Of a stretch of DNA of 64,000 nucleotides, positions 18,448 to 60,925 are shown in pieces. Under the pieces are notes generated by a model. That model was not told the DNA's origin. It made no database searches and worked only from the letters and a program-made list of their open reading frames with translations. Origin of the DNA: Chloroflexota bacterium. GTDB taxonomy: Bacteria > Chloroflexota > Anaerolineae > B4-G1 > SLSP01. Where the stretch lies: positions 62,001 through 126,000 of the forward strand of contig JAIOAX010000008.1 of assembly GCA_019873645.1 (NCBI GenBank). Direction: 5' to 3'. Numbering within the stretch: position 1 is the first letter of the stretch; each line of letters begins with the position of its first letter. A program made the translations under genes and the position numbers.

Positions 18448-20846
18448 TCGCAAGTCGTGAGACTCCCCGCAGGCTGCGCTCAATTCCGACGACTGGGATG
18501 CGTGGCGGACTGGGACGAACCCTGTTGACTGCCTTTTTGATTTTGACGATTCTCCCGCTCGCTCTGATCGGAGGATACGCCGCACAAAACAACCGTCGTA
18601 ATCTTCAACAAGAAGTCAAAAGCAAATTACAGGCAGTTGCCACCTTAAAAGGCGAAGAACTCCAACAGTGGTTTGAGCATAGCCGTCAGGTGCTGTTGAC
18701 GCCGATTTCCTGGACGCCTGACGCTCCGGCCGGTCAGCGCGAGGTCTGGTGGGAAAGCATCCGTAAGCAGGAACCCGATTTGATGGGGGCAACGCGCTTT
18801 GACCAGAACGGGCAGACCCTTTGGACGCTGGGCGCATGTCACAGCGTCGCCCAGGTTGCCGACTCACCTGATTCGGTGACAGAGCAGAGCTTATCGGCTG
18901 CCATCTCTGAGCGCAAGGCCTCTCTCCCCCCCGGCCAGTTTGTCCTGTTAGGTGATGCCGATGCCTGGTTGCTGGTCTACGCTGCTCAGGAGCATACCAC
19001 GGTTTTCTGCCTGCGTGAGTCGGCTTTGAGCCGCATCATTCAATATGACGCCCTGCTGGATAAAGCGCTGATCGGTGAGACGGGGAAAGTCTACCTGGTG
19101 TCTCAAGGACGCATCTGGCCGGGCGGCGTGGAGGCCACCAGCATCAAAGCCACAGGCACGCTGCCGCGCCTTGTCGGGAATGGTGTGTACGTGAACCATC
19201 TGAACGTTCCCGTCATCGGCGCGTACTACCACCTGAACGAGTTTGACGTCGGCGTGCTGGTGGAACAGGCGCAATCCGAGACGTTGGAATCCACCGAGCG
19301 CATTGCCGCCACCTTAATCGCGTTAGTGCTGGCGGTGGCGCTGGCGACGACCGCTATCGCGGCCATTGTGATCCGTCAGATCACCCGTCCCGTCATCCGG
19401 CTCACCGAATCCGCTGTGGCGATGGCCGAAGGCGACCTGGCCCAACACCTTGAAGTCACCTCGCGTGATGAAATCGGCATCCTGACGTTCGTTTTCAACG
19501 AGATGGCCGCCGACCTCAAATCGCTGTACGAGGACCTGGAGGCCAAAGTGGCCGAACGCACACAGCGTTTACAACAGGCCAACTACCTGATTCAGCGCCG
19601 CGCCCTGCATCTCCAGGCCAGTCAGGAGGTGGCGCAGGCCATCACCTCGGTGCGCGACCCGGCCCTGTTGCTCAACCAGGTTGCGGATCTGATTCGTGAG
19701 TGTTTTGTGTATGCTTCGGTGGCAATCTATATTGTGGAACCCGGTGGAGGAGAAATACGTTTGCGCGCCCATAGTCCCGCTACCCGCCCGGATACTGTTG
19801 TAGATATTATTGACCAGGGGGCGTGGCCCGGTTATGTGTACGCCGGCGACGGCTCGATCATCGAACGCGCCGCCCGCAAGCGCGCGGCCCTTGTTGAGCA
19901 TCAACAAACGGATGAAACGGTGGAGTGGTACCGGCGCACCCTGAGTCGAGCGGCGATTCCTCTACGGATGGAAGAGCGCGTGCTGGGGGTGTTGGGCGTG
20001 TTGAGCACCGAACATGAAGGCATTCAGGAGGACGAACTCGAAGTTCTGGAACTGCTGGCCGGGCAGGTGACGGTGGCGCTGGAAAATGCCAGAGCCTACG
20101 AGCGGGAGCGTCTGGCGGCCCAACGTCTGGAAGAAGCCGAGGCTTTCAAAGGACGCTTCCTGGCGAACATGTCCCACGAATTGCGCGAACCTCTGAATAC
20201 AATCATCGGTTTCTCCCGTCTGATGATCAAGGGCATTGACGGCCCGCTGACGCCTCAACAAGCCCAAGACATGCAACGCATCTACGACGATGCCCAACGA
20301 CTCTTGTTTTTGATCAACGACATCCTGGCAATTTCGCAAATTCAGGCCGGTATGATGGAGCTGCGATTGCAACCGGTGCATCTACAAGACCTGGTAGATG
20401 CCGTAATGCCTACGGTCAGTGCTCTGGTGCGCGGCAAAGACATCGAACTGCTCCAGGAAATCCCGGCAGATCTGCCGGCGCTGAACGCCGATCCGATACG
20501 CTTACGGCAGGTGCTCTTGCACCTCTTCAACAATGCGGCGAAATTTACCGAGCGCGGGCAGATCACCCTGCGCGCCTGGCATAACGAAAATCAAGTCTAT
20601 GTGAGTGTAAGTGATACCGGGGTGGGCATCCCCCCCGAAGATTTCGAGCGGCTTTTTATGCGCTTCGAGAAAGGCGCAGATAAAGAAGGCCGTTGGCAGA
20701 GCGGCATTGGGTTAGGTCTAGCGTTGAGCAAGGAGTTTGTGGAGATGCACGGAGGACAGATTTGGGCCACCAGTGAGGTCAACAAAGGCAGCACCTTCAC
20801 ATTCTCTTTGCCGTGCTATGCTGCTGACGGCGAGGGGAGGAAATGA
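18432..20846 (+). CDS. Membrane sensor histidine kinase (CACHE-like, HAMP, GAF, HisKA, HATPase)
   Basis: The 804-aa protein has an N-terminal membrane helix (about 30-47), an outer CACHE-like domain (about 55-285), a second helix (about 292-314), HAMP (about 315-370), coiled coil, GAF (about 395-555), HisKA with His582 in MSHELREPLN, and HATPase with N-box LFNNAAKFT near 698-706, DTGVGI near 728 and GIGLGLALS near 758. It is the only complete enzyme in the whole sensor run. The kinase is hybrid-free, so it would pass phosphate to the two receivers encoded upstream. GAGGAGG lies immediately before ATG 18432, unusually close; the next Met is 18498. The Arg in HELREPLN replaces the more usual Lys/Arg-Thr/Asn context but the His is intact. 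Confidence 0.9.
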   Translation: MGTGVVASRETPRRLRSIPTTGMRGGLGRTLLTAFLILTILPLALIGGYAAQNNRRNLQQEVKSKLQAVATLKGEELQQWFEHSRQVLLTPISWTPDAPAGQREVWWESIRKQEPDLMGATRFDQNGQTLWTLGACHSVAQVADSPDSVTEQSLSAAISERKASLPPGQFVLLGDADAWLLVYAAQEHTTVFCLRESALSRIIQYDALLDKALIGETGKVYLVSQGRIWPGGVEATSIKATGTLPRLVGNGVYVNHLNVPVIGAYYHLNEFDVGVLVEQAQSETLESTERIAATLIALVLAVALATTAIAAIVIRQITRPVIRLTESAVAMAEGDLAQHLEVTSRDEIGILTFVFNEMAADLKSLYEDLEAKVAERTQRLQQANYLIQRRALHLQASQEVAQAITSVRDPALLLNQVADLIRECFVYASVAIYIVEPGGGEIRLRAHSPATRPDTVVDIIDQGAWPGYVYAGDGSIIERAARKRAALVEHQQTDETVEWYRRTLSRAAIPLRMEERVLGVLGVLSTEHEGIQEDELEVLELLAGQVTVALENARAYERERLAAQRLEEAEAFKGRFLANMSHELREPLNTIIGFSRLMIKGIDGPLTPQQAQDMQRIYDDAQRLLFLINDILAISQIQAGMMELRLQPVHLQDLVDAVMPTVSALVRGKDIELLQEIPADLPALNADPIRLRQVLLHLFNNAAKFTERGQITLRAWHNENQVYVSVSDTGVGIPPEDFERLFMRFEKGADKEGRWQSGIGLGLALSKEFVEMHGGQIWATSEVNKGSTFTFSLPCYAADGEGRK

Positions 20847-22747: not shown

Positions 22748-22751
22748 CACC

Positions 22752-24479
22752 ATGAGTGAACAACGGGGCGTTTTGCAAACCGAGGATACCCTCATCAAAG
22801 TGCACGACTGGCAGCAGATGTTGATTCGTCAAGTGTTGCGGGTCGTATTTCTGGCAGCCATTCCGGCGCTGTTGTCCTCGTCATACTTTGTGTGGCGCGA
22901 CGGCAGAGGCGGGTTAATTCCCTTCTACGTGCTGGGCTTCGCGGCGGTAGGCATCATGCGGTTTTGGAAAAAAGCCCCCTACGTGCTGCAGGTCGCCTCT
23001 CTGTTACTGGTGCTGTATATGTTCGCCGTGCTATCGTTGATGCGAGGGGGCTTGAGCAGCAATGCGCCACTCTTCTTGCTGGGCCTGGTTTTTGTCGCGG
23101 CGATTTTTCTGGGAAGGCAAGCCGCAATCAGCAGTGTCCTCGTCACCGGCGTCACCATGGCAATTGCCGGCTGGTTGTATTCGACCGGACAGGCATTGGT
23201 GCCTTATGAGATGCAATTGATTACCGCCAAGCCGGTCGCGTGGGCCACATACACGTTTATCCTGCTGATGCTCAGCGTGTTTTTCGTGGCCGCCCAAACC
23301 TATATGCAACAATATTTGACGGAAGCGCTGACCGAAAGTCTGGTGCTGAGCCGCAAACTTACGCAAGACCGTGAGGAAGCACAACGTGAGGCGCAGCTCC
23401 GGCGTGAACATGCCGAGCAGTTGCGCTGGGTGGTCTCTCTCAGTCATACGCTTACCCTGATCCGGCAGCGCGAAGACCTGGCCCGCCGGGTAGTCCAGGA
23501 ACTCGCGCGCACTTTCGACATTTACCAGGCGAACCTGTACCTGCTCGAACGTACCGGCGCCATTTTGAGCCTGACAGCTACAGCCGGCGCGCTTGGCGAA
23601 GCCTTGTCACAGGCTGGTGGGGACATTGCTTTCAGCGCGCGCGTGGCGCCGGCACGGGCGGCCCAAATCGGCCGGGAGCAGATGGCGCTGCTGCTCCCCG
23701 AAGAGCTGCCGCACTTCCCGGAGAGCCGCGTCGAAGTCAGCCTGCCGCTGAGTGTCCGCGGCGAGGTGATCGGGGTACTGGATATTCACAGCCGGCATCC
23801 CTCTTTTTCTGAAGAAGAACTACAGGTCTTCCGTATTGTGGCCGGGCAAGTGGCGGCCTCCCTGGATGTACTGCGGCTGATCGAAGAATCGCAGGCGCGG
23901 ACGCGGGAAATGCAAATGCTGTATGCCCAGTACGCCCTCACATCCTGGCGGACGCTGTTCGAATCGCAGCCGGCACCTTCTTTCGCCATCGGCAAGGTCC
24001 CAGAGGCACAGATAGCGGCGCTGGCACAAGAAGCCATGGCCGCGCTGCAATCGCGCTCAACCTGGTTGGATGAGATGGGGATGTACCTGTTGGTCGTCCC
24101 CTTGGTGGCGAACGGCGTGGCAGTGGGGTATCTGGCCTTCACCCGCACGGCCGAGAAAGGCGATTGGGATGCGGAAACCCGTGAGCTTATCCGCATCGCT
24201 GTCGAGCGTCTAGGCACGGCGCTTGACAATACTCGCATGCTCCTGGATGCACGCCGACAACTTTTCTACAATGAACGTCTGGGACGACTTGGCGATTTGA
24301 TCTGGCAGACGCCCGATCCCGAAGCCATTATGGAACAAAGCGCGCGGACCCTGGGCCGTTTCCTGGGAGCCAGCGAGGTGCAGTTATACATCACGACAAC
24401 GCCAGGCGGTGCGCGCCGGGGACGCGGGACGCAGCCCCTGAGGCCTCACACTGAGGAGGAAGCCGCAGAAAAGGGTTAA
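22752..24479 (+). CDS. Six-helix membrane GAF sensor with Trp module and truncated GAF tail
   Basis: The 575-aa protein starts 4 bases after the previous stop. Six membrane helices lie at about 27-47, 53-69, 77-97, 103-121, 124-142 and 164-183; a coiled coil rich in Glu/Arg follows to 225. The GAF is at about 230-375. A Trp module starts at YAQYALTSWRTLF (Trp399) and contains only the final GAF strands and helix (LVVPLVANGVAVGYLAF; about 435-495). The tail at about 505-555 (ERLGRLGDLIWQTPDPEAIM) starts a new GAF and stops. The N-terminal 45 residues resemble those of the preceding protein (WQQMLIRQVLRVVFLAAIP against WRQQLFERILRVIVLVALP), so the two arose by duplication. Confidence 0.82.
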   Translation: MSEQRGVLQTEDTLIKVHDWQQMLIRQVLRVVFLAAIPALLSSSYFVWRDGRGGLIPFYVLGFAAVGIMRFWKKAPYVLQVASLLLVLYMFAVLSLMRGGLSSNAPLFLLGLVFVAAIFLGRQAAISSVLVTGVTMAIAGWLYSTGQALVPYEMQLITAKPVAWATYTFILLMLSVFFVAAQTYMQQYLTEALTESLVLSRKLTQDREEAQREAQLRREHAEQLRWVVSLSHTLTLIRQREDLARRVVQELARTFDIYQANLYLLERTGAILSLTATAGALGEALSQAGGDIAFSARVAPARAAQIGREQMALLLPEELPHFPESRVEVSLPLSVRGEVIGVLDIHSRHPSFSEEELQVFRIVAGQVAASLDVLRLIEESQARTREMQMLYAQYALTSWRTLFESQPAPSFAIGKVPEAQIAALAQEAMAALQSRSTWLDEMGMYLLVVPLVANGVAVGYLAFTRTAEKGDWDAETRELIRIAVERLGTALDNTRMLLDARRQLFYNERLGRLGDLIWQTPDPEAIMEQSARTLGRFLGASEVQLYITTTPGGARRGRGTQPLRPHTEEEAAEKG

Positions 24480-24516
24480 GCGGCGCAGCGCCGTGAGCTA
24501 TGGAGAGACGTCGGCA

Positions 24517-27081
24517 ATGAACCTGTCTTTAGGAAGTCAAACATTACAACTGATCACCTGGATGTTGGCGCTGATCGCGATGATTATGGCGCTGTACATC
24601 CTCATTCTCAACGCGCGTCACCCGGTCAACCGCCACGTGAGCCTGTTATCCGCTTTGCTGGCCGTGAACGGTCTCGCTCTGGGCGCGCTCAGCAGTGCGG
24701 ATAGCTTTGAACAGGCTCGCTTCCCGACACAACTGCTGGCAGCTACGGTGTACACGGCGATTCCTGCAGCGTGGCTCGCGGCTATGGCGCTCTTGCGGCC
24801 GACCTGGGCCCAAAAACGCTGGCTCTGGTGGTTGGGGTATATCGCCATAGCCTTGCCGATAGCAGCGACCGTGATGGATGTGCTGTTGGGGACGCATTTA
24901 TGGTACGTCGGCCTGGACGCAAATACCTATGAGGGTGGTTACATTTCCCTTGGGAAATACGTATCCCCGACGTTGTATATGCCGTTCATCCTTATCCATG
25001 GCTTTATCCTGGGCCTGCTCCCGTTGATCCCGGCCCTCGGCGTGCTGCGTAATCAAACTTCCCCTGCACCCATGCGTGAGATCGCACGCTGGATTGTATG
25101 GGGGACATTGGCGACGGCGGTGCTGCAAATCGGCTTCCGCAGGTGGATCCCGGCCGAATTGATGCTCGTTGTTGTCACGGCGGTCTATCTCGTCGTTTAC
25201 GTCTATGCCTTTTTCCGCCACATGGCCATTGAGCCGCAAGTACATCGTGGCAGCCTGCGTGGCCGCCTGACCGCGCTCTTTTTGTCCATCACCCTGCCGA
25301 TTTTGCTGATTAGCGTCCTGTTGGTGAACGCTCAGGCGCGCGCGTTGCTCAGACGCAGCGAGACTAATCGTCTCGGCGCCATTGCGCATTTGATGCTCAG
25401 TACCGCAGACCTGGAGAAAAGTCCCTCGATTCAGGACCTCCAGCGTCGCTTGCGCCTGGCCGTGGTGGAAGTTGGCCGTACCGGCGTGGTTTACCTGGTA
25501 GACGGCAAAGATCGTTATATCCTCCATTCGGGAATGGATTTCACGCTGGTCGGTGAGGATGAAGCCACGCGCGACGCCAGCCGCCAGCCGCCGGTCGTGG
25601 CACTGCGTCAGGGGCGCGCCGACCGGCTCATCATCTTCACCGACGCCGAAGGCGTGCGCTGGTGGGCTTACGCCACCGAATTGGGCGTTCTCCGGCAAGG
25701 TGTGGTGGTGCAGCAACAGGAAGTTGTCATCACCCAGCAAATGCAACGTTTCCTGCAGTTTTCCTGGCTGGTTGTCGGGCTTGGCGGCGCGATACTGTTC
25801 GTTTTGGGGGCGCTGACGATCTACCGCGTCTTCCTTCCGATTGTCTCGCTCACTCAAACGGCGCAGGCAATAGCCGCCGGCGACTTGACCCGCGTGGCGG
25901 CCGTCGAAGGCGAAGATGAGATCGGCGCACTGGCGCGCGCTTTCAATGCGGTGACAGCGCGCTTGAACGAGTTGATCGGCACCCTTGAAGCCCGGGTGGC
26001 CGAGCGCACCCAAGAAGTCGAGCGCCGCGCCGAATACCTGGCCATTACCGGAGGGGTAAGTCAGGCTGCGGCTTCCATCCTGGATGTGGACACCTTGCTG
26101 GATCGCGTGGCGCACTTGATTGCAGAGCGTTTCGGCTTCTACCATACCGGCATCTTTTTGCTGGACGAGGCGCGGGAATGGGCAGTTTTGCGCGCCGTCT
26201 CCTCGGAAGGCGGCCAACGCATGCTGGCACGAGGACACCGTTTGCGTGTCGGCGAGCAAGGTATCGTCGGTTACGTCTCCGGTTCGGGCCGCGCACGTGT
26301 GGCCCTCGATGTGGATGAGGACATGGTGTGGGTGAAGAACCCCGACCTGCCCGAGACGCGCTCCGAGATGGCTTTGCCCCTGATCGTGGGCCAGGAAGTG
26401 ATCGGCGTCCTCGATGTCCAAAGCCAGGCTGCGGAGGCTTTCGGCCCTGAAGACGTTGCCACTTTGCACATTTTGGCTGACCAGATCGCGGTGGCGATCC
26501 GCAATGCGCAATTGTTTGAAGAGAGCCGCCGCGCCTTGCAGGAATTGCGGAAGTCCTATGGCGAAGAGGTGCGCGTCGGATGGGCGTGGCGCCCATCGCC
26601 GGTGGTGGGCTATCGCTACACCCCCTTGGAACTCACGCCGATTACTTCGGGGGCGACGCTGCCGTTGCTGGAGACACAGACGCCCTACGTGGCGGCCGAC
26701 AACACCTTGATTGTGCCTTTGCAAGTGGGCGGCGGAGAAACCTTTGGGGCGCTGCGGATACGCCGTGACGTAGCCCAGCCCTGGGGAACTCAGGATATTG
26801 CCTTTGTAGAACGGGCTGCGCAAGATGTCGCACAAGCCCTGGAAGTGGCGCGCCTGCTCGAAGAGAGCCGCCGCCGCGCGGCCCGCGAAATGCAGGTGAA
26901 CGAGATTGCCAGCCTCTTCGCACGCGCGCTGGATGTAGATGTGGTATTGCAGACCGCGGCGCGCGAGCTGGGACGGCTTTCCGGCGTTGCCGAAGTTGCC
27001 GTACACCTCAACCTGCCGGAATCCCTTGTCGAATTGGAGGCCGGGGGCGGCTTATCAACAGAGGGCTTGTCCACGGATTGA
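24517..27081 (+). CDS. Seven-helix plus CACHE-like sensor with HAMP, GAF, Trp module and tail
   Basis: This protein of about 854 aa begins with seven hydrophobic helices (about 10-235; the layout recalls the 7TM N-terminal regions of some histidine kinases). It has a further helix, an outer CACHE-like domain (about 280-400), another helix (about 414-438), HAMP (about 440-492), coiled coil, GAF (about 505-662), Trp module (VGWAW near 687-691, GYRY near 699) and tail (about 795-835). The first start, GTG 24493, has no ribosome site; ATG 24517 has GGAGAGA at 24500-24506. Its last residues, LSTD and stop, come from the border repeat CGGATTGAG. It lacks an output domain. It differs from its neighbours in carrying two stacked membrane-sensor units. 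Confidence 0.82.
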   Translation: MNLSLGSQTLQLITWMLALIAMIMALYILILNARHPVNRHVSLLSALLAVNGLALGALSSADSFEQARFPTQLLAATVYTAIPAAWLAAMALLRPTWAQKRWLWWLGYIAIALPIAATVMDVLLGTHLWYVGLDANTYEGGYISLGKYVSPTLYMPFILIHGFILGLLPLIPALGVLRNQTSPAPMREIARWIVWGTLATAVLQIGFRRWIPAELMLVVVTAVYLVVYVYAFFRHMAIEPQVHRGSLRGRLTALFLSITLPILLISVLLVNAQARALLRRSETNRLGAIAHLMLSTADLEKSPSIQDLQRRLRLAVVEVGRTGVVYLVDGKDRYILHSGMDFTLVGEDEATRDASRQPPVVALRQGRADRLIIFTDAEGVRWWAYATELGVLRQGVVVQQQEVVITQQMQRFLQFSWLVVGLGGAILFVLGALTIYRVFLPIVSLTQTAQAIAAGDLTRVAAVEGEDEIGALARAFNAVTARLNELIGTLEARVAERTQEVERRAEYLAITGGVSQAAASILDVDTLLDRVAHLIAERFGFYHTGIFLLDEAREWAVLRAVSSEGGQRMLARGHRLRVGEQGIVGYVSGSGRARVALDVDEDMVWVKNPDLPETRSEMALPLIVGQEVIGVLDVQSQAAEAFGPEDVATLHILADQIAVAIRNAQLFEESRRALQELRKSYGEEVRVGWAWRPSPVVGYRYTPLELTPITSGATLPLLETQTPYVAADNTLIVPLQVGGGETFGALRIRRDVAQPWGTQDIAFVERAAQDVAQALEVARLLEESRRRAAREMQVNEIASLFARALDVDVVLQTAARELGRLSGVAEVAVHLNLPESLVELEAGGGLSTEGLSTD

Positions 27082-27094
27082 GCGAATTTTAGCG

Positions 27095-27140
27095 GACGAC
27101 TAACGTTCTAACCTGCTAACGTTCAAACGTTTCAACCTGA
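27095..27140. repeat. Short degenerate tandem repeat, unit CTAACGTT/TTCAACCT
   Basis: CTAACGTTCTAACCTGCTAAC and GTTCAAACGTTTCAACCTG fill the 71-bp gap before the next sensor gene. Confidence 0.7.
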
Positions 27141-44465: not shown

Positions 44466-44483
44466 ATGAATGAAGGGGGCGGC

Positions 44484-45896: not shown

Positions 45897-45899
45897 ACC

Positions 45900-49780: not shown

Positions 49781-49795
49781 TGGAGGAATGTGATA

Positions 49796-52054: not shown

Positions 52055-52060
52055 ATGCAG

Positions 52061-53749
52061 ATGTGGAACAAGGTGAAGCAGTTTCTGGCAGCCCCTGTTT
52101 TTGCCGATAATGAGGAGAAGACGCGCGTTGCCGCTTTGCTCAACCCCCTGCTGTTGAGCCTGTTTGTAGCGGATATTTGCGGCGCCCTGGCAACGCTGTT
52201 TGTCTTTGCCAACAAAGTGGGCAGCGGTCTCGGGGTTGTGGCCATCTTTTTTGCTACGGTCATATCCAAACTGTGGCTGCAACGTGGGCGCGTGCAGGCA
52301 GCCGGCATTCTATTTATCGCCGGGGTAGGAGCTCCTCTCCTGACGATCTTTTTGCTTTCCGAGCAGCGCAGCTTTTCCGGCATGACGTTGCTGAGCCTGA
52401 CCGTGGTGGCCGGTTTAATCCTGGGGCCGCGGGCGGCCTTGAACGTAGCTGCCCTGAGTAGCTTGTTCTCATTGGCCGCGCTGCTGGCTGCCCGGCTTGG
52501 TCATCCCCTGCCGGCTGTTTTCCCCGCGCCCCAGGCGTCCAACTGGGTGATGTTAACACTCGCCCTGGCGCTGGCTTGGGCCCCCTTGAACCTGGCATTG
52601 CGTAGTCTGAACCAGGCATTGGCGCAGGCCCGTGCCTATGCCGTCGAATCGGATGAACGCGGCCGGCGGCTGGAGTCGCTGCTGCGCGAGCGCGACGCCG
52701 AGTTGTACCGTCGCGCTGCCTATCTGGGGGCGACGACCGCCATTGCCGCCGAGCTATCTTTCATCGAATACGAAGCGCCTCAACTGCTCTCGCGGGTAGT
52801 GCAGATCATTGCCGAGCAGTTTGGTTTCTATCATGCGGGCCTCTTTCTTCTGGATGAGGAACGTGAATGGGCCGAACTGCGCGCCGCTTCCAGTCCCGGC
52901 GGTCAGCGCATGTTGGAACGCGGCCATCGCCTGCGGGTAGGCGCCGAGGGGATCGTCGGCGCCGTCGCCGAACGAGGGGAAGCGCGCGTGGCACAGGATG
53001 TGGGTAGGGATGCATTCTTCTTTAACAATCCCGACCTGCCCGAAACACGCGCCGAGGCCGCCTTGCCTTTGCGCGTGCGCGGTGTGACCATTGGCGTGCT
53101 GGATGTGCAAAGCACCGACCCCTATGCTTTTAGCACCGAAGACGTCAGCGTGCTCCAGGCCCTGGCCGATCAGGTGGCCGTGGCGATTGACAGTGCACGG
53201 CTCTTCCAAAAAACACAGGAGATATTGACCGCCGAACGGCGCACCTACGGCGAACGGACGCGCCAGACGTGGCAAGAACTGCTGCGCGCCCGTCCTCATC
53301 TGTCCTTTGTCGGCGATGCGAGCGGCATTGCACCGTTCACCACCTGGGAGCCGCAAATGAAGGCCGCCGCGCAAACCGGTAAGATCGTTATTGACAGCGA
53401 TACGCCGAATGTGCTAGCGATCCCGCTGCGTGTGCGCGAGCAAGTCATCGGCGTGATTGACGGCCGCAAACCCGATGGCGCGGCGTGGACCAATGAAGAA
53501 ATCAACCTGTTGCAAACGCTGACCGAGCAATTGAGCGCGGCGCTTGAAGGCGCGCAACTGTATGAGGACACTCAGCGCCGTGCGGCCCGTGAACAGTTAG
53601 CGCGTGAGATCACCGACAAGATGCGCAGTGCCGTCAGTTGGGATGAGCTGATGCAGACGGCGATCCAGGAAATGGCGGAGGCCGTGGGCGTCTCGCGCTC
53701 CTTCGTCCACTGGATTCCACCACAGGTCACACTCTCAGAAGGGAGCTAG
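52061..53749 (+). CDS. Six-helix membrane GAF sensor with Trp module and tail
   Basis: This protein of about 562 aa has an N-terminus MWNKVKQFLAAPVFADNEEK that matches the sensor at 56638 (MWTRIKRYFTLPVFADEEQT), which argues for ATG 52061 rather than ATG 52055. Six membrane helices span about 26-180, a coiled coil follows, then the GAF (about 225-385), Trp module (RTRQTW, Trp404; AIPLRVREQVIGVIDGRKPD) and tail (about 505-548, REQLAREITDKMRSAVSWDE). The shared PVFAD..EKTR segment before the first helix defines a sub-family of two. AAAGGA lies at 52046-52051 within the end of the preceding gene. Confidence 0.84.
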   Translation: MWNKVKQFLAAPVFADNEEKTRVAALLNPLLLSLFVADICGALATLFVFANKVGSGLGVVAIFFATVISKLWLQRGRVQAAGILFIAGVGAPLLTIFLLSEQRSFSGMTLLSLTVVAGLILGPRAALNVAALSSLFSLAALLAARLGHPLPAVFPAPQASNWVMLTLALALAWAPLNLALRSLNQALAQARAYAVESDERGRRLESLLRERDAELYRRAAYLGATTAIAAELSFIEYEAPQLLSRVVQIIAEQFGFYHAGLFLLDEEREWAELRAASSPGGQRMLERGHRLRVGAEGIVGAVAERGEARVAQDVGRDAFFFNNPDLPETRAEAALPLRVRGVTIGVLDVQSTDPYAFSTEDVSVLQALADQVAVAIDSARLFQKTQEILTAERRTYGERTRQTWQELLRARPHLSFVGDASGIAPFTTWEPQMKAAAQTGKIVIDSDTPNVLAIPLRVREQVIGVIDGRKPDGAAWTNEEINLLQTLTEQLSAALEGAQLYEDTQRRAAREQLAREITDKMRSAVSWDELMQTAIQEMAEAVGVSRSFVHWIPPQVTLSEGS

Positions 53750-53764
53750 AACATACGGCATGTT

Positions 53765-53893: not shown

Positions 53894-53915
53894 ATAACCA
53901 GAAGGAAGAACTAGC

Positions 53916-56621
53916 ATGACAGAAAGCAAACCAGTGAACCGCATAGAGCGCGAATCTGAGGGCCGTGAAGGCAAAATACTCACTTCCCTGGAAAAACGCA
54001 TGCTATTGGCCGCCGGCGCCTCCCTTGTCGCCGGGGGCCCCTATCTGGTGATGGCCTGGTTCGAGCGCGCCTGGCAATTGTGGGCCGTGGCCCTGCTGAC
54101 CTGGGTCATCGCCGGCGTGAGCTTCGCTGTCTACCGTATTGCCAGGCGTGGCAAGAGCACGTCGGCGGCCACCGTCTGGATCATCGCGCTCACCGTGCTC
54201 CTGCCGGCCTATGCCCTGTTTCTTAAAGACGCTTTCTGGGCGCTCATCCCGGCAGTGATTGCCTTCCCCATCTACATTGCGGCTCTGGCGTGGCCGGAAG
54301 CATTGCGACGCCGGCTGTGGATATGGAGCGCGCTGGGTGTTGGACTCGTTGTGGGTGTCGAACTGCTGCATCCCCTGCCGCGCTACACCCAGACCCAGAT
54401 GTGGACCTTACGGCTGCTGTTGTTCGGGATGTTGGCGTTCGGCCTGTACATCGCTGCCCTTGCCTTCGTGAACACCTATCGCCGTATTACCACGATTCGC
54501 ACACGCCTGATTATTACCTCGGTGCTGGTAGTCTTGCTGGTTGCGGGGATGCTGAGCACTGGCGCCATACTGGTCAACATCAACAACACCCAACGCCAGG
54601 CGTTTGACCAATTGCGCGCGCTTGTGGCCTTGAAGAAAACGACGCTGACAATATGGTTTGAAGGTTTACAATCCACGCTCAACACGGTCGTATCCGGCGA
54701 TTATGAAACGGATTATGTGCGCACGCTGACGATCCCCTGGGCCGGCGGAGCACAACTTTCCAGCGCCAAAAACGCGCTGCGCGTGCGTTTCATCACCTTT
54801 ATCAGGGATAACCCGCAGTTCGATGAGCTATTCCTGGCGGGGCTGGATGGACAGGTGTTGATGTCATCCGATGGGGACCAGATCGGCAAGCTATATACCG
54901 ACGCTGAGTTCCTTGAATGTGGCATGTGGAAGCCTTGTATCAGCGTATTACGCTCTGTGTCCGGGCTTGAGCAGATGGTCATTGTCATCGCCCGCCCGGT
55001 GCTGGATCGCTCCGGTCAAATTATCGCGGTCCTGGCCGCACGTGTCAATATGGAGCACCTGAGCCGGATTGTCGCCGAACCGCATGTGGGAGAAACCGGC
55101 GAAACCTACCTGGTGGCTGCCGATCATCAGGTCATCACCCAACGCCGCTTTGGCGGTGAAGATTATGCCTATAGCGAAGGTATTGATCTGGCGCTGTACC
55201 TGCAACAACCAGACCTGCGCACCGCGACCTACGCTGATTATCGCGGCGTTCCCGTGCTGGGGGTGTTCACCTGGGTACCGGAACTCCAGGCCGTCTTGCT
55301 TTCGGAAATCAACCGCTCGGAGATTCTCCGGGGGGCGTGGCTGACCGCGCTTATCAATGCCGGCCTGGCGCTCGCGGCCCTGGTGTTGGCCGGGACCGTT
55401 TCGTACTTCTTTGCCAATAATGTCTCTGCGCCGATCGCCGACCTGGCACAGACGGCGACACGCATTGCCGCCGGCGAGCATGACCTGGTAGTGCGGGTGC
55501 AGCGCCACGACGAAATCGGTGTACTGGCACAGGCGTTCAACAGTATGACCAGGCAATTGCGCGAGCTGATTGCCAGTCTGGAACAACGTGTGGCAGCGCG
55601 CACCCAGGGACTGGAAGCCGTCGCCGAGGTAGCACGGGCAACAACCTCGGTGCTCGATCCCAATCGGCTGTTGCCTGAAATGGTGAACCTGGTCAAAGAG
55701 CGTTTCGGATTCTACTATGTCGGTTTGTTCCTGGTGGACGAGGCACGGCGCTACGCCGTGTTGCGCGCCGGCACCGGAGAAGCCGGACGGCACATGCTGG
55801 CCCAGGGCTGGCAACTGGCCGTCGGGATGGGATCCATGATCGGGCAGTGTGTGGCGACCGGCAAACCCTTGATCCGCCAGAAAGCCGGCGACGCCGTTGT
55901 GCGCTTCGAGAACCCCTTCCTGCCCGATACCCGTTCCGAGCTGGCCCTGCCCTTGCGTTACGGCGGGCGCGTCATCGGCGCCATGACCGTGCAAAGCGTT
56001 GCAGAATCTGCCTTTGACGAGGCGGCCATTGTTACCCTGCAAAACATGGCCGATCAGGTGGCTGTAGCAGTGGAAAATGCCCGCCTTTTCGCCGAAACAC
56101 AGGCGGCGTTGCAGCGCGCTCAGGAAGTGCAGCGCCGTTATCAAGGACAGGCATGGCGCGATTACCTCAAGTATCGCCCCGCGCGTGGTTACGAGTGGCG
56201 CAGCGGCGCGCTCTTGACGCGGGGCGATGAACTCCCGCCCGATGTACAACCGGTGCTTCAGAAACGCGCTGCCGCGGTGGACGAAAAGACGCTGCTGCTC
56301 CCTCTCGTACAGGGCGATCAGGTGATCGGTGTTCTGGGGTTTGAAAACGAAGCGGGGCGCAAAACCTGGAGCGCCGATGAGGTGGCGCTGATCGAAGCTC
56401 TCTCCGAACAACTGCTGTTGGCGGCAGAAAACCAGCGCCTCCTCGACGAGACCCAACGCCGCGCCGCCCGCGAGCGCCTGAGCCGCGAGGTCACGGCGGA
56501 AATGCGCCGTTCTCTGGACGTGACCACCGTACTGCGGACGGCGATCCGTGAACTTCAGGAATCGTTGGGGCTCACCGAGGCTGAGGTGTGGATTGAAACT
56601 GAGGCAGGCGCCGAAGAATAG
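53916..56621 (+). CDS. Membrane sensor with helix bundle, CACHE-like domain, HAMP, GAF, Trp module and tail
   Basis: The 901-aa protein has about six hydrophobic helices (about 28-188), a further helix (198-222), an outer CACHE-like domain (about 230-470: DELFLAGLDGQVLMSSDGDQ, VGETGETYLVAADHQVITQR), another helix (about 475-497), HAMP (about 498-552), GAF (about 565-725), Trp module (RRYQGQAW, Trp747; GYEW near 759) and tail (about 850-893, RERLSREVTAEMRRSLDVTT). The start is ATG 53916 with AAGGAAGAA upstream. Like the sensor at 24517, it stacks two membrane-sensor units. The CACHE part resembles that of osmosensory or small-molecule kinases, but no ligand motif is recognised. Confidence 0.86.
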   Translation: MTESKPVNRIERESEGREGKILTSLEKRMLLAAGASLVAGGPYLVMAWFERAWQLWAVALLTWVIAGVSFAVYRIARRGKSTSAATVWIIALTVLLPAYALFLKDAFWALIPAVIAFPIYIAALAWPEALRRRLWIWSALGVGLVVGVELLHPLPRYTQTQMWTLRLLLFGMLAFGLYIAALAFVNTYRRITTIRTRLIITSVLVVLLVAGMLSTGAILVNINNTQRQAFDQLRALVALKKTTLTIWFEGLQSTLNTVVSGDYETDYVRTLTIPWAGGAQLSSAKNALRVRFITFIRDNPQFDELFLAGLDGQVLMSSDGDQIGKLYTDAEFLECGMWKPCISVLRSVSGLEQMVIVIARPVLDRSGQIIAVLAARVNMEHLSRIVAEPHVGETGETYLVAADHQVITQRRFGGEDYAYSEGIDLALYLQQPDLRTATYADYRGVPVLGVFTWVPELQAVLLSEINRSEILRGAWLTALINAGLALAALVLAGTVSYFFANNVSAPIADLAQTATRIAAGEHDLVVRVQRHDEIGVLAQAFNSMTRQLRELIASLEQRVAARTQGLEAVAEVARATTSVLDPNRLLPEMVNLVKERFGFYYVGLFLVDEARRYAVLRAGTGEAGRHMLAQGWQLAVGMGSMIGQCVATGKPLIRQKAGDAVVRFENPFLPDTRSELALPLRYGGRVIGAMTVQSVAESAFDEAAIVTLQNMADQVAVAVENARLFAETQAALQRAQEVQRRYQGQAWRDYLKYRPARGYEWRSGALLTRGDELPPDVQPVLQKRAAAVDEKTLLLPLVQGDQVIGVLGFENEAGRKTWSADEVALIEALSEQLLLAAENQRLLDETQRRAARERLSREVTAEMRRSLDVTTVLRTAIRELQESLGLTEAEVWIETEAGAEE

Positions 56622-56637
56622 AGAATAGAGGATAGAG

Positions 56638-58434
56638 ATGTGGACGCGAATTAAACGCTACTTTACGCTGCCGGTGTTCGCCGACGAAGAACAAACGCGG
56701 GCTGCACGGTTGCTCATCACCATTCTCCTGGTCCTGGCGGGAATGGGTCTGGTGACAGATGTGGTATTACTCTTGATTTATGGCTGGCCGACAACCTGGC
56801 AAGATGTCATCCCGCATATAACCTTTGTAATCATCCTGGCTATGGTACTCGCTGCTTTTGCGTTTGTGCGCCGTGGCTATATGAAGGCAGTCTCCACTGT
56901 AGTGCTGACTTTTATATGGATCGCCATTACACAATGGGTCTGGACTGTCGAGGGCCTGAGCCTGGGTCATAGTATCTACGTCTATACCCTCATTATTGTT
57001 ATGGCCAGCCTGCTGTTGGGTAGAGGGGGTATCTTTGCCTATACACTCCTGGGACTTGTGGGTGTTTTAGTGGCCTATTACCTGGATTATACCGGAAGGA
57101 TTCCCAACGGTAAACCTATCTCTTTATTCAGTCTGGTTATCGTTATCACTATTTTGATCCTGTTGGGCGTTTTCTTAAATTATGCCCTCCGGAGTCTGCA
57201 ACGCGCCCTCAGGCAAGCACGCCAGGCGGCTGCGGCGCAAGCTGCGGCCAACCGGGAACTGGAAGCGATCCGCGCTTCCCTGGAACAACGAGTGGCGGAG
57301 CGCACCGAAGATCTGGAACGCCGCTCGATCCAGTTGCAGGCGGTGGCAGAAATCGGGCGTACCGCTGCGGCGATCCACGACCTGAATAAACTCCTGGCCG
57401 AAATCCCCACAATGATCGCCGAGAGGCTGGACCTTTACCACGTGGGCGTTTTCTTACTCGACGAAGATGGGCTGGATGCCGTGCTGCGCGGCGCAAGCAG
57501 CCCGGAGGGACAGCAGATGCTCTCCCAGGGTTACTCACTGCCGGTCGGTTCACCGGACATCATCGGTATGGCAACGGCCCAGCGAGAACCCCGCACCCTG
57601 GCAGCAACCAATACCGATGAGGTGAGCTTTGCCGGCGCGCTGCTCCCACGCACACGCGCGGAACTGGCGCTGCCGCTGGCAGCCGGAAACCAGCTGCTGG
57701 GTGCCCTGGACTTACATAGCGTGGATAGCGCGGCTTTCCCACCACAGACGGTCTCGGTTATGCAGTTGTTGGCGGATCAGGTGGCGATCGCCATTGAAAA
57801 CGCTCAATTGTTCGCCCAGCGTGAAGCCTCGCTGGAGGCCGAACGTCGAGCCTACGGGCAGTTCAGCCGCGAAGCCTGGCAACAGTTGTCGCGCGCTACC
57901 GGCGCCCTGCGTTTTATTGCAGATAGGCCCGGCGTGGTGCGCCCGGCCGAGGGCGACGCCCCGCCGTTGATGCACCAGGCGCGTGAGACCGGCCGGCTGT
58001 TGACTACCCCGGATTCCACCCTGGTCGCGCCAATCCAGGTGCGCGAAGGCGTATCCATTGGCGCGTTGCGTCTGCACAAACCCGACTGGAGTGAGGAGGA
58101 GATCACCCTGGTCGAGACGCTGACCGAACAGCTCGGCGCGGCGCTCGAAAGCGCGCGCTTGTACCAGGAGACCCAACGCCGCGAAGCGCGCGAGCGCGTC
58201 ACCCGTGAGATCACCGAAGACTTGCGCCGCTCGGTAGATATTGAAGTGATCCTGCGTTCTGCCGTGACCAGTCTGGGCGAGGCGCTGGGCGTTCCGCGTG
58301 CCTATGTACGCCTGATGTTGGAGGATACCGCCGTCCCCGCTGCCGCAACGGGCGCCGCGGAAAAACAGGTATCGGATATGACTGCCGCCGTTGAATCCGC
58401 TGCGAAGCAAGGAGCAGAAGACCATGAGTCATAA
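56638..58434 (+). CDS. Six-helix membrane GAF sensor with Trp module and tail
   Basis: The 598-aa protein begins MWTRIKRYFTLPVFADEEQT, paired with the sensor at 52061, and starts 16 bases after the previous stop (AGAGGATAGAG before the ATG). Six membrane helices lie at about 27-47, 58-77, 84-105, 113-133, 135-150 and 162-181; a coiled coil follows. The GAF is at about 230-390, the Trp module starts at SREAW (Trp414) with APIQVREGVSIGALRLHKPD, and the tail is at about 518-560 (RERVTREITEDLRRSVDIEV). A low-complexity Ala/Glu C-terminus follows the tail. No output domain. The next gene overlaps its 3' end by 11 bases. Confidence 0.85.
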   Translation: MWTRIKRYFTLPVFADEEQTRAARLLITILLVLAGMGLVTDVVLLLIYGWPTTWQDVIPHITFVIILAMVLAAFAFVRRGYMKAVSTVVLTFIWIAITQWVWTVEGLSLGHSIYVYTLIIVMASLLLGRGGIFAYTLLGLVGVLVAYYLDYTGRIPNGKPISLFSLVIVITILILLGVFLNYALRSLQRALRQARQAAAAQAAANRELEAIRASLEQRVAERTEDLERRSIQLQAVAEIGRTAAAIHDLNKLLAEIPTMIAERLDLYHVGVFLLDEDGLDAVLRGASSPEGQQMLSQGYSLPVGSPDIIGMATAQREPRTLAATNTDEVSFAGALLPRTRAELALPLAAGNQLLGALDLHSVDSAAFPPQTVSVMQLLADQVAIAIENAQLFAQREASLEAERRAYGQFSREAWQQLSRATGALRFIADRPGVVRPAEGDAPPLMHQARETGRLLTTPDSTLVAPIQVREGVSIGALRLHKPDWSEEEITLVETLTEQLGAALESARLYQETQRREARERVTREITEDLRRSVDIEVILRSAVTSLGEALGVPRAYVRLMLEDTAVPAAATGAAEKQVSDMTAAVESAAKQGAEDHES

Positions 58435-60925
58435 AGAACCAACCCGGGTTGACAACGCGCCTGAAGAAATCCGCGCGTCGCGCCCGTTCACCAATTCCCA
58501 GTCCCCAATCCCTAATCCTCAATCCCCGGTCCCCGATCCCCAGTCCTTGCTCACCGAACTGGAAGAACTGCGCGCGCGCTACGCTTTCCTGCAACGCTTG
58601 CTGGACCTCAACCCCAACTTCGTCTTCGTGCGCGACCGCGAAGGCCGCTTCGTCTTTGCCAACAAGGCGCTGGCCGAGGCCTACGGGACCACCGTGGCAG
58701 AACTGCTCGGTAAGACAGATGCCGATTTCAACCCCAACCTGAAAGAAGTAGAATCCATTCACCGCAGCGACCTGGAAGTGATGGAATCCCTGCGGGACCA
58801 GTTTATCCCCGACCGCGCCATCCTGCGCAATGGACGTTGGGTGCAGACGACCAAATTGCCGATCGTAGATGCCGACGGCGTAGCGCGGCATGTGCTCGGC
58901 ATCTCCAGCGACATCACCGAGCGCATCCAGATGGAAGAAGCCATCCAGGCCTCGCTGGAACGGCGGGGACGCCAGGTGCAGACCTCCACCGAAGTTGCCC
59001 AGGAGATCGCGGCGGCGACGGCATTGGATGAACTGTTCCGCCGCGTCGTCACCCTCGTCAAAGAACGCTTTGGCTATTATCACGTCCAAATCTTCCGCTA
59101 CGACGCCGCCGCGCGGGTGATGCGTCTGGTGATCGGCTATGGCGCCGTGGGGCAGCGCATGCTTGAAGCCGGCCATTACGTGGCAATTGGACGTGGCGTG
59201 GTCGGCGCTGCGGCTGCGACCGGACGGCCGGTGCTGGCGCCCGATGTCACCCGCGACCCCGACTGGGTGCCCAACACCTTCCTACCGGGGACGCGCGGCG
59301 AGTTGGCCGTCCCCATCAAACTGCGCGACCAAATCCTGGGCATCCTCGACGTGCAGAGCAATATCACCGGGGCCTTGACGACCGAGGACCAACTTTTGCT
59401 GGAGGGTCTGTGCGGGCAGATCGCCATTGCCATACAAAGCACCCAACTGCTCGAAGAGGCCAACACCTTCCGGCAAGTCATCGAATCCTCCGGGCAAGGC
59501 ATCTGTATGGCGACCCTGGATGGCATGTTGACCTACACCAATGCGGCCTATCGCACCCTTGTCGGTACGGAAACGGACGCTGCGGCACTGTTGGGACGCT
59601 CGTTCTTCGATCACTATCCTGAGCCATTGCGGGCGCGTGTGCGGGAGGAGATCATCCCTACATTGTTGACGCAAGGACAATGGCAGGGAGAACTGGAAGT
59701 GCTCGCGGCCGATGGCAATACCATTCCCACGCTGGAAATCCTGACCCTGGTGCGCGACGAACGGGGCAACCCGCGCTACCTGGCGCGTCAAATTACCGAC
59801 ATCAGCGCGCGCAAGGCGATGGAGGAAGCCCTGGCGATGGAGCGCCATCTGCTGCAAACCATGATGGATAGCGTACCGGATCACATCTATTTCAAAGACC
59901 TGCAGAGCCGCTTCCTGCGTATCAGTACCGCTGACGCGCGCTGGCATAACCTTGACGACCCCGCCCAGGCCATTGGGAAGACGGACTTCGATTTCTTCAG
60001 TGCCGAACACGCAGAGCAGGCTTTTGCCGACGAGCAGCGGATCATCGCTACCGGTGAACCGATGCTCAATGTGGAAGAGAAAGAGACGTGGCCGGATGGC
60101 CACGTCACCTGGGTTTCGACCAGCAAGATGCCCCTGCGTGACCAAAAGGGGAACATTATCGGCACCTTTGGCATCTCGACCGACATCACGGCGCGCAAGC
60201 TGGCCGAAATGGAGCGCGAGCAAATGCTGCGGGATATGGAGCGGCAAGCCGAACAATTGCGCAGCGCCGTGGCCGATATGACGCTGGTTCAGGAAACAAT
60301 GACAGCCTTGACGGCGGCCACCACCTTTGAGGAAGCCGTCAACATCCTGCTCCCCGCCGTCGTCGCAGCGGTCAAGGCCGACCGGGTCAGCATGTTCAGG
60401 ATCGAAGGCGAGCAGATGATCCGTGTCAGTGTGTATCCCCCTGATGAACAACAACGCGCACGCCTCGGTGAAGTGCTGTCCCTGGCAGACTATCCCTTGA
60501 CCCGGCAAGCGGTTGAGTCACGTCACCCACTGGTGGTCACCGGTGATGATCCGCGACTTCAAGAGCATGCGCGGCGCGCGTTTGCCGAGGCCGGCATTGT
60601 TGCCCATGCTACGATTCCTATGATTGGGCGTGAAGGGGTCCTGGGTACCCTCTCGGTCAATTTGATCTCTAAAGAGACCTTCTCGGATCACGACATCCGC
60701 ATGATGCAGACGTTGGTCAACCAAACCACGCTGGCTATCGAGAACATCCGTTTGTTAGAGCAGGCCCGCATGCGCGCCGAACGAGAACGGCTGGTGCGCA
60801 CTATTTCTGACCGGATTCGGCGCGGCACCAACCGCGAAGTGATTTTGCGCGCGACGCTGCATGAACTATCGCAGATGCTCGGCGCCTCCAAGAGCGTGCT
60901 CTGGCTAGGTGAACAGGAGCGTTAA
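58424..60925 (+). CDS. Soluble PAS-GAF-PAS-PAS-GAF sensor with truncated tail
   Basis: The 833-aa protein starts at ATG 58424 with AAGGAG at 58409-58413; an earlier TTG at 58391 is less likely. Residues about 20-45 (PFTNSQSPIPNPQSPVPDPQ) are encoded by a CCCCAATC-type border repeat running in frame. Domains: PAS (about 52-167), GAF (about 185-340), PAS (about 348-460), PAS (about 470-595), GAF (about 615-780) and tail (RERLVRTISDRIRRGTNREV, about 785-828). No Trp module and no membrane helix. Its PAS with GKTDFDFFS and its first GAF (YYHVQIFRYD) are close relatives of those in the sensors at 45900 and 39957. Confidence 0.84.
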   Translation: MSHKEPTRVDNAPEEIRASRPFTNSQSPIPNPQSPVPDPQSLLTELEELRARYAFLQRLLDLNPNFVFVRDREGRFVFANKALAEAYGTTVAELLGKTDADFNPNLKEVESIHRSDLEVMESLRDQFIPDRAILRNGRWVQTTKLPIVDADGVARHVLGISSDITERIQMEEAIQASLERRGRQVQTSTEVAQEIAAATALDELFRRVVTLVKERFGYYHVQIFRYDAAARVMRLVIGYGAVGQRMLEAGHYVAIGRGVVGAAAATGRPVLAPDVTRDPDWVPNTFLPGTRGELAVPIKLRDQILGILDVQSNITGALTTEDQLLLEGLCGQIAIAIQSTQLLEEANTFRQVIESSGQGICMATLDGMLTYTNAAYRTLVGTETDAAALLGRSFFDHYPEPLRARVREEIIPTLLTQGQWQGELEVLAADGNTIPTLEILTLVRDERGNPRYLARQITDISARKAMEEALAMERHLLQTMMDSVPDHIYFKDLQSRFLRISTADARWHNLDDPAQAIGKTDFDFFSAEHAEQAFADEQRIIATGEPMLNVEEKETWPDGHVTWVSTSKMPLRDQKGNIIGTFGISTDITARKLAEMEREQMLRDMERQAEQLRSAVADMTLVQETMTALTAATTFEEAVNILLPAVVAAVKADRVSMFRIEGEQMIRVSVYPPDEQQRARLGEVLSLADYPLTRQAVESRHPLVVTGDDPRLQEHARRAFAEAGIVAHATIPMIGREGVLGTLSVNLISKETFSDHDIRMMQTLVNQTTLAIENIRLLEQARMRAERERLVRTISDRIRRGTNREVILRATLHELSQMLGASKSVLWLGEQER
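58496..58548. repeat. In-frame short tandem repeat, unit CCCCAATC/CCCTAATC
   Basis: TCCCAGTCCCCAATCCCTAA, CCTCAATCCCCGGTCCCCG and ATCCCCAGTCC inside the 5' part of the PAS-GAF sensor gene; translated as Ser/Pro/Asn/Gln-rich linker. Confidence 0.8.

What the first reader, a model, noticed from the sequence alone, without database searches (positions are those of the whole stretch)
20843..60925. Sixteen consecutive sensor genes with no output domain behind one histidine kinase and two receivers
Seen: sixteen complete same-strand genes with GAF/PAS modules and very different input domains, none with HisKA, HATPase, GGDEF, EAL, PP2C, HTH or cyclase motifs. They follow an overlapping REC-REC-kinase trio and are followed by two STAS-like proteins and another sensor. 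Known: GAF and PAS sensors normally feed an enzyme in the same chain. Inference: the sensors work in trans as one multi-input assembly, comparable in idea to chemoreceptor arrays or stressosomes, with the kinase at 18432 or a partner outside the window as the output.
Basis: partly seen in the sequence, partly recalled or inferred. Interest (0 to 1): 0.93.

Follow-up and report, generated by a model that had tools for sequence, protein, structure and literature searches.

The report
Output-less sensor array sharing one kinase
This bacterial gene cluster encodes twenty sensor proteins that carry no output domain but all end in the same short tail, and they likely pass their signals to a shared histidine kinase, because in related bacteria a sensor at the same place is found either as a separate protein or fused directly to the kinase.

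Summary
The sixteen sensors (20843-60925) have no Pfam output domain, and the array runs past the window: more sensors (20 in all), a solute-binding protein and a 2360-aa hybrid kinase, HK2 (GAFs-HisKA-HATPase-REC-REC). All 20 sensors end in the same ~55-60-aa tail ("stub"): the start of a GAF domain, then a stop.

The layout REC1-REC2-(sensors)-HK2 recurs in relatives: 23 of 301 sampled genomes of the phylum, 22 of them in the window's class, with 4 to at least 34 sensors. Both ends are seen on 25 of 31 mapped array contigs; the other six run into a contig end.

The best evidence that sensors serve the kinase is a fusion. In one genus a sensor is output-less, with a separate kinase downstream, in four species, and fused to that kinase in five.

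Many clusters also carry a ParA-like ATPase gene beside the sensors, as some chemoreceptor operons do. Chemoreceptor and stressosome hallmarks are absent from the window's sensors.

Best reading: a split, multi-input histidine kinase whose output-less sensors likely act in trans through the stub. Physical assembly, docking site and cellular response are untested.

The parts
17609..18001 (+). REC1, stand-alone receiver
   Evidence: PF00072 1.3e-27; same subfamily at the head of relatives' clusters, phosphorylation signature residues present in 25 of 25 REC1-type proteins
17998..18447 (+). REC2, stand-alone receiver
   Evidence: PF00072 2.5e-20; one match in each of the 23 sensor genomes of the phylum sample
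18432..20846 (+). HK1: membrane kinase, HAMP-GAF-HisKA-HATPase
   Evidence: N-terminal GGLGR motif shared by HK1 of 8 mapped clusters, own included
20843..22747 (+). sensor S01: MASE11-GAF-GAF-stub (last 64 aa)
22752..24479 (+). sensor S02: MASE11-GAF-GAF-stub (last 78 aa)
24493..27081 (+). sensor S03: membrane region-HAMP-GAF-GAF-stub (last 73 aa)
27153..29123 (+). sensor S04: LacI-type ligand-binding domain without HTH, then stub (last 80 aa, weakest of the 20)
   Evidence: Peripla_BP_3 6.4e-30; stub 32 bits
29132..32362 (+). sensor S05: LacI-type domain-GAFs-stub (last 76 aa)
32413..34755 (+). sensor S06: dCache-like (below cut-off)-GAF-GAF-stub (last 63 aa)
34887..37763 (+). sensor S07: LacI-type domain-GAF-GAF-stub (last 72 aa)
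37760..39973 (+). sensor S08: dCache-HAMP-GAF-GAF-stub (last 69 aa)
39957..44138 (+). sensor S09: LacI-type domain-GAF-PAS-PAS-GAF-GAF-stub (last 56 aa)
44466..45896 (+). sensor S10: membrane region-compact GAF-stub (last 76 aa)
45900..49676 (+). sensor S11: multi-PAS-GAF-stub (last 58 aa)
49790..52054 (+). sensor S12: ABC_sub_bind-GAF-GAF-stub (last 64 aa)
52055..53749 (+). sensor S13: membrane helices-GAF-GAF-stub (last 61 aa); modelled
53564..53746 (+). stub of S13, example of the shared C-terminal module: helix continuous with the GAF2 helix, second short helix, would-be strand without partner in the model
   Evidence: conserved up to the strand, variable after it
53916..56621 (+). sensor S14: dCache-HAMP-GAF-GAF-stub (last 58 aa)
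56638..58434 (+). sensor S15: membrane helices-GAF-GAF-stub (last 89 aa)
58391..60925 (+). sensor S16: PAS-GAF-PAS-PAS-GAF-stub (last 55 aa)
60939..61346 (+). SpoIIAA-like (STAS-type) single-domain protein
   Evidence: PF11964 23.3 bits, cut-off 25
61904..62260 (+). second SpoIIAA-like protein
   Evidence: PF11964 29.7 bits
62305..64000 (+). sensor S17 (runs to position 64590 beyond the window); then S18, S19, ABC_sub_bind protein, S20 and hybrid kinase HK2 outside the window (to position 80444, contig C8:142444)

Best explanation
The cluster encodes a histidine-kinase signalling pathway whose input side is split off into twenty output-less sensor proteins that likely act in trans on the shared hybrid kinase HK2 (and probably on HK1 here). 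SHOWN: each sensor pairs its own input region with a common C-terminal end, GAF-type sequence followed by a helix-helix-strand stub, and lacks a kinase core. SHOWN: in relatives, sensors sit between the receiver pair REC1-REC2 and a hybrid kinase HisKA-HATPase-REC-REC. SHOWN: in one genus the same locus holds either an output-less sensor with a stub-like end plus a separate kinase, or one protein in which the kinase core replaces that end. INFERRED: the stub therefore stands where the kinase helices would stand and couples the sensor's signalling helix to the kinase. INFERRED: the kinase then phosphorylates its own receivers, REC1, REC2 and, in many relatives, a threonine-synthase-receiver fusion encoded next to it. 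INFERRED: where a ParA-like ATPase is present it positions the assembled sensors and kinase in the cell. In family f4 the kinase starts with what looks like the missing half of a GAF, so stub and kinase may complete one domain between them (hypothesis only).
For: No output domain in 20 of 20 own sensors. Stub in 20 of 20. On 30 contigs, 272 of 282 proteins sorted as sensor-like carry the stub; of the other 10, two are cut by a contig end, four are kinases or proteins outside the array, one carries a stub just outside my distance limit, one has a SpoIIE output, one a broken stub and one an end that does not score. A stub profile built only from own sensors (S04 left out) scores >=25 bits at 250 of 256 terminal matches on other contigs but at 1 of 264 internal ones, and that one is itself a near-terminal stub. 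Stub sensors lie on one strand on 30 of 30 contigs; 176 of 242 neighbouring pairs are at most 30 bp apart, median 5.5 bp, 36 more than 500 bp. REC pair and HK2 are both seen on 25 of 31 array contigs. REC2 at >=165 bits occurs in 26 of 301 genomes including all 23 with sensors; the other three are the fused form (G226), a one-sensor form (G294) and a two-sensor form (G250). Fusion: G226's 1937-aa kinase matches G294's output-less sensor (91.65% over an alignment of 1485; 160 of 160 identical at 1241-1400) joined to G294's separate kinase (9 of 12 full 20-residue windows from 1441 to 1680 identical, the others 18-19 of 20), switching at about 1405-1440. In the family, 4 of 9 genomes are split and 5 of 9 fused.
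Against: No physical interaction, phosphotransfer or complex model was obtained. The split species of the fusion genus end in a segment with the stub's layout that, in G294 where it was tested, does not score with the stub profile, so their equivalence rests on position and layout. The stub's end is modelled with low confidence (pLDDT 57, 46 and 39 in the last blocks). The half-GAF start of HK2 was found in 15 of 16 f4 kinases by two patterns but in none of the 9 other HK2s, the window's own among them, so a split-GAF dock cannot be general. No ParA on 9 of 30 contigs, the own one among them, nor in G250. Two kinases in the own cluster leave the true partner open. The head sensor of f4 is not clearly a kinase-less HK1 (mixed best matches).
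Confidence: 0.68

Rival explanations
1. Sensors and kinase form mixed dimers through the shared coiled-coil helix between GAF domains, so that output-less sensors mainly inhibit or titrate the kinase (RetS/GacS-like), with the stub only a helix cap.
For: The model shows one continuous helix from GAF2 into the stub (residues 480-525), and the f4 HK2 model starts with a similar helix after a GAF half (109-144, low confidence). Helix pairing between kinases is a known mode (recalled, no call).
Against: In S13 relatives the stub is conserved beyond the helix into a second helix and strand (0.69, 0.57, 0.45, then 0.24 after it). Up to 34 different sensors would compete for one kinase.
Confidence: 0.25
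2. The stub is a relic of one ancient gene break inside a GAF domain, copied with every duplication, and the sensors signal by something other than the stub or not at all.
For: The stub looks like the start of a GAF domain. The sensors look like one expanded paralogous family with shared C-terminal GAFs.
Against: The stub helix is as conserved as the folded GAFs in S13 relatives (0.69 against GAF2 0.65, GAF1 0.75 and N-terminus 0.51), and conservation drops right after the strand. The four split species of another family carry a conserved stub-like end of different sequence.
Confidence: 0.12
3. The array feeds a partner-switching (STAS/PP2C) pathway, with the two SpoIIAA-like proteins as its output and the kinases serving other inputs.
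For: Two SpoIIAA-like genes lie inside the own array and two in G003. G011 has a GAF-SpoIIE phosphatase, a DUF6272 protein and a weak STAS match inside its array.
Against: My maps show STAS-type genes only in own and G003, while the REC pair and HK2 are constant. The search was weak, though: its profile came from the two own proteins and missed the G011 one that Pfam found.
Confidence: 0.1

Closest known systems
Chemosensory arrays (MCP-CheW-CheA), including ParA-positioned ones (Vibrio ParC/ParP; Rhodobacter PpfA/TlpT; passages of PMC5706961 read)
   Same: Many receptors with varied inputs and one constant signalling end, without own enzyme, and a shared kinase; stand-alone receivers; on 21 of 30 contigs a ParA-like ATPase gene beside the sensors, and in 18 of 18 HK2s with a basic N-terminal motif (all of families f4 and f7) the ParA gene lies just upstream.
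   Different: No MCP signalling domain in the own sensors, no CheA/CheW; the constant end is GAF plus stub; the kinase is HisKA-type with two receivers. 5 of 6 searched genomes have no MCP domain match at all.
Stressosome (RsbR/RsbS/RsbT; abstracts seen in search listing)
   Same: Sensors with a constant C-terminal domain converge on one kinase-driven output.
   Different: Own sensors have no STAS domain; no RsbT-type kinase in the Pfam-scanned own cluster genes; STAS-type genes seen in only three of the mapped genomes, by a weak search.
Hybrid histidine kinase phosphorelay with stand-alone receivers
   Same: HK1, HK2, REC1 and REC2 are ordinary parts by Pfam.
   Different: The input side is split off into 4 to at least 34 separate proteins.
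Kinases with accessory sensors in trans (TorS-TorT, LuxQ-LuxP, GacS-RetS; recalled, no call)
   Same: A protein without output of its own adjusts a kinase from outside.
   Different: Usually one or few accessory proteins, periplasmic or kinase-like; here a large gene cluster of GAF sensors with a common tail.

Membership tests
Chemosensory array | receptors carry the MCP signalling domain (PF00015) | tested here: not met
   no PF00015 in 20 of 20 own sensors at E<=0.01; genome search finds one MCP in the own genome, elsewhere on contig C40, and none in 5 others
Chemosensory array | CheA-type kinase with CheW coupling | tested here: not met
   HK1 and HK2 are HisKA+HATPase_c; no CheW match among the Pfam-scanned own cluster genes
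Chemosensory array | ordered receptor lattice in the cell | not testable with these tools
   needs imaging
Stressosome | sensor domain fused to a C-terminal STAS domain | tested here: not met
   own sensors have none; the two SpoIIAA-like proteins are single-domain
Stressosome | RsbT-type kinase and RsbS in the operon | tested here: not met
   not among Pfam hits of the own cluster genes; the single-domain SpoIIAA-like proteins were not tested further as RsbS
Two-component hybrid kinase system | HisKA, HATPase_c and receiver domains | tested here: met
   HK1 and RECs, HK2
Two-component hybrid kinase system | input domain in the same chain as the kinase core | tested here: not met
   20 of 20 own sensors lack a kinase core, although HK1 and HK2 keep inputs of their own
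ParA-positioned protein cluster | dedicated ParA-like ATPase in the locus | tested here: inconclusive
   21 of 30 contigs, best PDB matches are ParA/Soj proteins; other ParA relatives in six genomes are 30-47% identical to the G024 one, but in G014 and G016 a copy elsewhere (47%) is nearly as close as the cluster copy (49%); absent from the own cluster

The most novel reading that the evidence does not exclude
A third kind of bacterial multi-receptor array, next to chemoreceptor arrays and stressosomes: dozens of GAF sensors without output plug into one hybrid kinase by GAF complementation, each sensor's C-terminal stub (helix plus first strand) pairing with the GAF half that opens the kinase, and a ParA ATPase that binds the kinase's basic N-terminal peptide spaces the arrays over the nucleoid; signals leave through two free receivers and a receiver-controlled threonine synthase.
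Probability: 0.22. Interest if true: 0.95.

Novelty: categorically new. Interest (0 to 1): 0.86.

Why it matters
Sensor proteins without an enzyme are often left in annotation as 'GAF domain-containing protein', as relatives of S13 are. Here a whole class of them gets a testable partner: a conserved locus, a shared C-terminal tag, and a natural fusion that names the kinase. If right, these bacteria integrate up to at least 34 inputs through one kinase by a route unlike chemoreceptors. That would allow new modular sensors to be built by attaching the stub to other input domains.

Tried and rejected
Split-GAF docking as a general rule: attractive because the modelled S13 stub ends in a strand without partner and the f4 HK2 model opens with a strand pair and a helix (82-144, low confidence). 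Kept only as a hypothesis: the half-GAF start was found in 15 of 16 f4 kinases (union of two patterns written after seeing the sequences; G287 missed by both) and in none of the 9 others of the 25 (own, G234 and G123 of f7, G007, G011, G014, G016, G030 and G258); and no complex could be modelled.

ParA and the basic HK2 start: 18 of 18 HK2s that fit the motif have ParA just upstream, 7 of 25 do not fit it (5 without ParA, 2 with ParA near HK1). The motif was also written after seeing the sequences, and all 18 are of families f4 and f7, so they are not independent. Against it: G250's HK2 has a similar start (read by eye) but no ParA was found on its contig.

The f4 head sensor as an HK1 that lost its kinase: blastp gave HK1 as best match for the N-terminal 380 residues in only some cases and weakly; not used.

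Stressosome and chemoreceptor membership: rejected on defining features.

Threonine-synthase-receiver fusion as the general output: it follows HK2 in 20 of 25 HK2 contigs and in G047 and G250, but in the own genome its two relatives lie on other contigs, so it is offered as a likely target in relatives only.

Literature: four searches for such a system listed nothing that describes it; only listings and abstract openings were seen there. One search (threonine synthase with receiver) listed six papers, none of which shows such a fusion in title or abstract opening. The library holds open-licence papers only.

Limits: my domain maps of relatives use home-made profiles for kinase core, receiver, GAF, stub, STAS and LacI-type domains and a simple ORF caller; other output domains were looked for by Pfam only in the 20 own sensors and in six relatives' sensor-like proteins, one of which, in G011, does have a SpoIIE output. 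S18 has two weak matches below cut-off, S_4TM and Peptidase_M13_N, taken as chance. The phylum searches scored at most 10 or 13 candidates per genome. Of G003's contig only 20,000 of 24,940 bases were fetched.
Full report
What was checked. The window is part of contig C8 of a 4.90-Mb genome.

The window cuts the system. DNA beyond it carries the rest of sensor S17, two more sensors (S18, S19), a solute-binding protein (ABC_sub_bind), a further sensor (S20, 1512 aa, six GAF stretches), and a 2360-aa hybrid kinase, HK2, with GAFs, HisKA, HATPase_c and two receivers. HK1 and HK2 are 46% identical over about 290 residues of the kinase region. The array is thus 20 output-less sensors bracketed by two kinases, with two stand-alone receivers in front.

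The shared tail. All 20 sensors end with the same stretch, about 55-60 residues long plus a variable end. It corresponds to the first helices and first strand of a GAF domain; then the protein stops, and usually the next gene follows closely (176 of 242 neighbouring stub-sensor pairs on 30 contigs are at most 30 bp apart or overlap, median 5.5 bp; 36 are more than 500 bp apart). I call it the stub. A profile built from 19 own stubs (S04 was left out for an insert) was run on array proteins and kinases: outside the own cluster it reaches 25 bits at 250 of 256 terminal matches, but at only 1 of 264 internal ones, and that one is a stub followed by a longer end. In relatives of S13 (69 sequences) mean conservation is 0.69 in the first stub helix, 0.57 in the second, 0.45 in the strand and 0.24 after it, against 0.75 in GAF1, 0.65 in GAF2 and 0.51 in the N-terminal membrane part. 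A predicted model of S13 (mean pLDDT 83.2, pTM 0.45) shows two GAFs on long helices, the last of which runs on into the stub; the would-be strand has no partner and low confidence. Foldseek's best PDB matches are GAF domains, with tandem-GAF and phytochrome chains further down the list.

Conservation. In a sample of 301 genomes of the phylum, 23 have strong matches to the GAF2-stub alignment; by the kinship column, as far as the listing shows, 22 of 38 in the window's class and 1 of 263 outside it (at most 10 candidates per genome were scored). A deeper search of four genomes put matches of 76 bits or more in one cluster, except two sensors in a second small array of G315. I fetched and mapped 31 array contigs (maps), not counting G250 and the second G315 array. 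Stub sensors are on one strand on 30 of 30 contigs counted. REC pair and HK2 are both present on 25 of 31; on the other six the array runs into a contig end, though of G003's contig the last 4.9 kb was not fetched. Sensor number runs from 4 (G123, G234) through 20 (own) to at least 34 on two contigs of G011 (that count lists 19 for the own cluster because S10 had no match to my GAF profile). REC2 was searched in the same 301 genomes: 26 reach 165 bits, among them all 23 sensor genomes, each with one match (at most 13 candidates scored).

The fusion. The three remaining REC2 genomes tell how the pieces belong together. G250 has two stub sensors. G294 has one output-less 1514-aa sensor (dCache-HAMP-GAFs), a methyltransferase gene (PF04672) and a separate 1069-aa hybrid kinase. 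G226, of the same genus and on one contig of 3.3 Mb, has a single 1937-aa kinase behind the receiver pair. Up to about residue 1400 it matches G294's sensor (91.65% over the whole alignment of 1485, 160 of 160 identical at 1241-1400) and from 1441 on G294's kinase (18-20 identical in each full window of 20 up to 1680; the BLAST match runs to the end); the switch lies at about 1405-1440, at the end of the last GAF. All nine genomes of that family were examined: split in G294, G321, G322 and G323 (in G322 across two contigs), fused in G226, G319, G320, G325 and G324 (G324's 5' end is cut). The split sensors end in a conserved segment with the stub's layout; in G294, where I ran it, the stub profile does not score it. 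So the same sensor occurs either with the kinase core in the same chain or, without it, ending in a stub-like piece while the kinase is a separate gene. This is the strongest evidence that output-less sensors of this locus serve this kinase.

More distant receivers. Weaker REC2 relatives in other classes lie beside or near hybrid kinases without such sensors (G185, G129, G232, G264, G080), which suggests that receiver plus hybrid kinase came first and the sensor array was added. In G089 no kinase lies beside the one REC2 relative that was mapped.

Positioning and output. A ParA-like ATPase gene lies beside the sensors on 21 of 30 contigs: just before HK2 on 18, directly after HK1 in G012 and G016 and near HK1 in G014; it is also before HK2 in G047. 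Its best PDB matches are ParA/Soj proteins. Other ParA relatives in six searched genomes are 30-47% identical to the G024 protein; in G014 and G016 a copy elsewhere (47%) is nearly as close as the cluster copy (49%). All 18 HK2 proteins whose start fits a short basic motif have the ParA gene directly upstream; 7 of 25 do not fit it, of which 5 have no ParA and 2 have it near HK1; G250 has a similar start and no ParA. In Rhodobacter, TlpT interacts through its N-terminus with the ParA-like PpfA, and Vibrio arrays use ParC/ParP (passages of PMC5706961); the likeness is suggestive, not a test. A threonine-synthase-like enzyme fused to a receiver (PF00291 + PF00072 in the G024 protein) follows HK2 in 20 of 25 HK2 contigs. 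In the own genome its relatives are elsewhere.

How it likely works. Input binding changes the helical spine of a sensor; the stub, standing where a kinase helix would follow, likely passes the change to the shared kinase; receivers carry the phosphate on. Shown: parts, order, conservation, stub, fusion. Inferred: contact, sign of the effect, phosphate flow, positioning. Against a single docking mode: the half-GAF start of HK2 was found only in f4 (15 of 16 there, 0 of 9 elsewhere; model). Against simple membership in known arrays: no MCP or STAS domain in the own sensors, and 5 of 6 searched genomes have no MCP domain match, the own genome one.

Verdict. Four literature searches listed no description of such a system.

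Noticed in passing
L070:6998-8650 (-) and 20 of 25 HK2 contigs: Threonine-synthase-like PLP enzyme with a C-terminal receiver domain, encoded right after HK2: a metabolic enzyme that looks phosphorylation-controlled.
   Followed up: partly
G000 contig C46:24454-36663 and C7:83555-86550 (L113-L115): The own genome has two other loci where a threonine-synthase-receiver relative sits beside kinases, one near a 2129-aa multi-GAF kinase.
   Followed up: partly
L050:15329-18135 (-), genome G011: A GAF-SpoIIE phosphatase, a DUF6272 protein and a weak STAS match sit inside the sensor array of G011, reminiscent of the SpoIIAA-like pair in the window.
   Followed up: partly
G315 contig C7:617098-632237 (L116, L117): A second, small array: two stub sensors, a Peripla_BP_6 protein, a 1525-aa kinase and a receiver-bearing 547-aa protein in the position of the threonine-synthase fusion.
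   Followed up: partly
L142:13116-13913 (-), genome G294; also G321, G322, G323: A gene lies between the split sensor and its kinase; in G294 it is an S-adenosyl methyltransferase (PF04672), in the other three a 265-303-aa ORF not scanned. In the fused species there is no such gene between the two parts.
   Followed up: no
window 14470-17496 (+): A 1008-aa protein with a weak YfhO match below cut-off just upstream of the receivers; it contains an internal stretch of short repeats (such as RSAVS, QPSAIS). ORFs of similar size lie upstream in G011, G014 and G016, not compared.
   Followed up: no
window 7013-9967 (-): Guanylate-cyclase-like, NB-ARC and TPR protein of 984 aa.
   Followed up: no
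ends of S03, S05, S06 and start of S16 in the window: Repeat-like peptide segments (such as LSTEGLSTD, NPQSPVPDPQS) in the variable ends after the stub or before the first domain, as if short DNA repeats had run into the coding ends.
   Followed up: no
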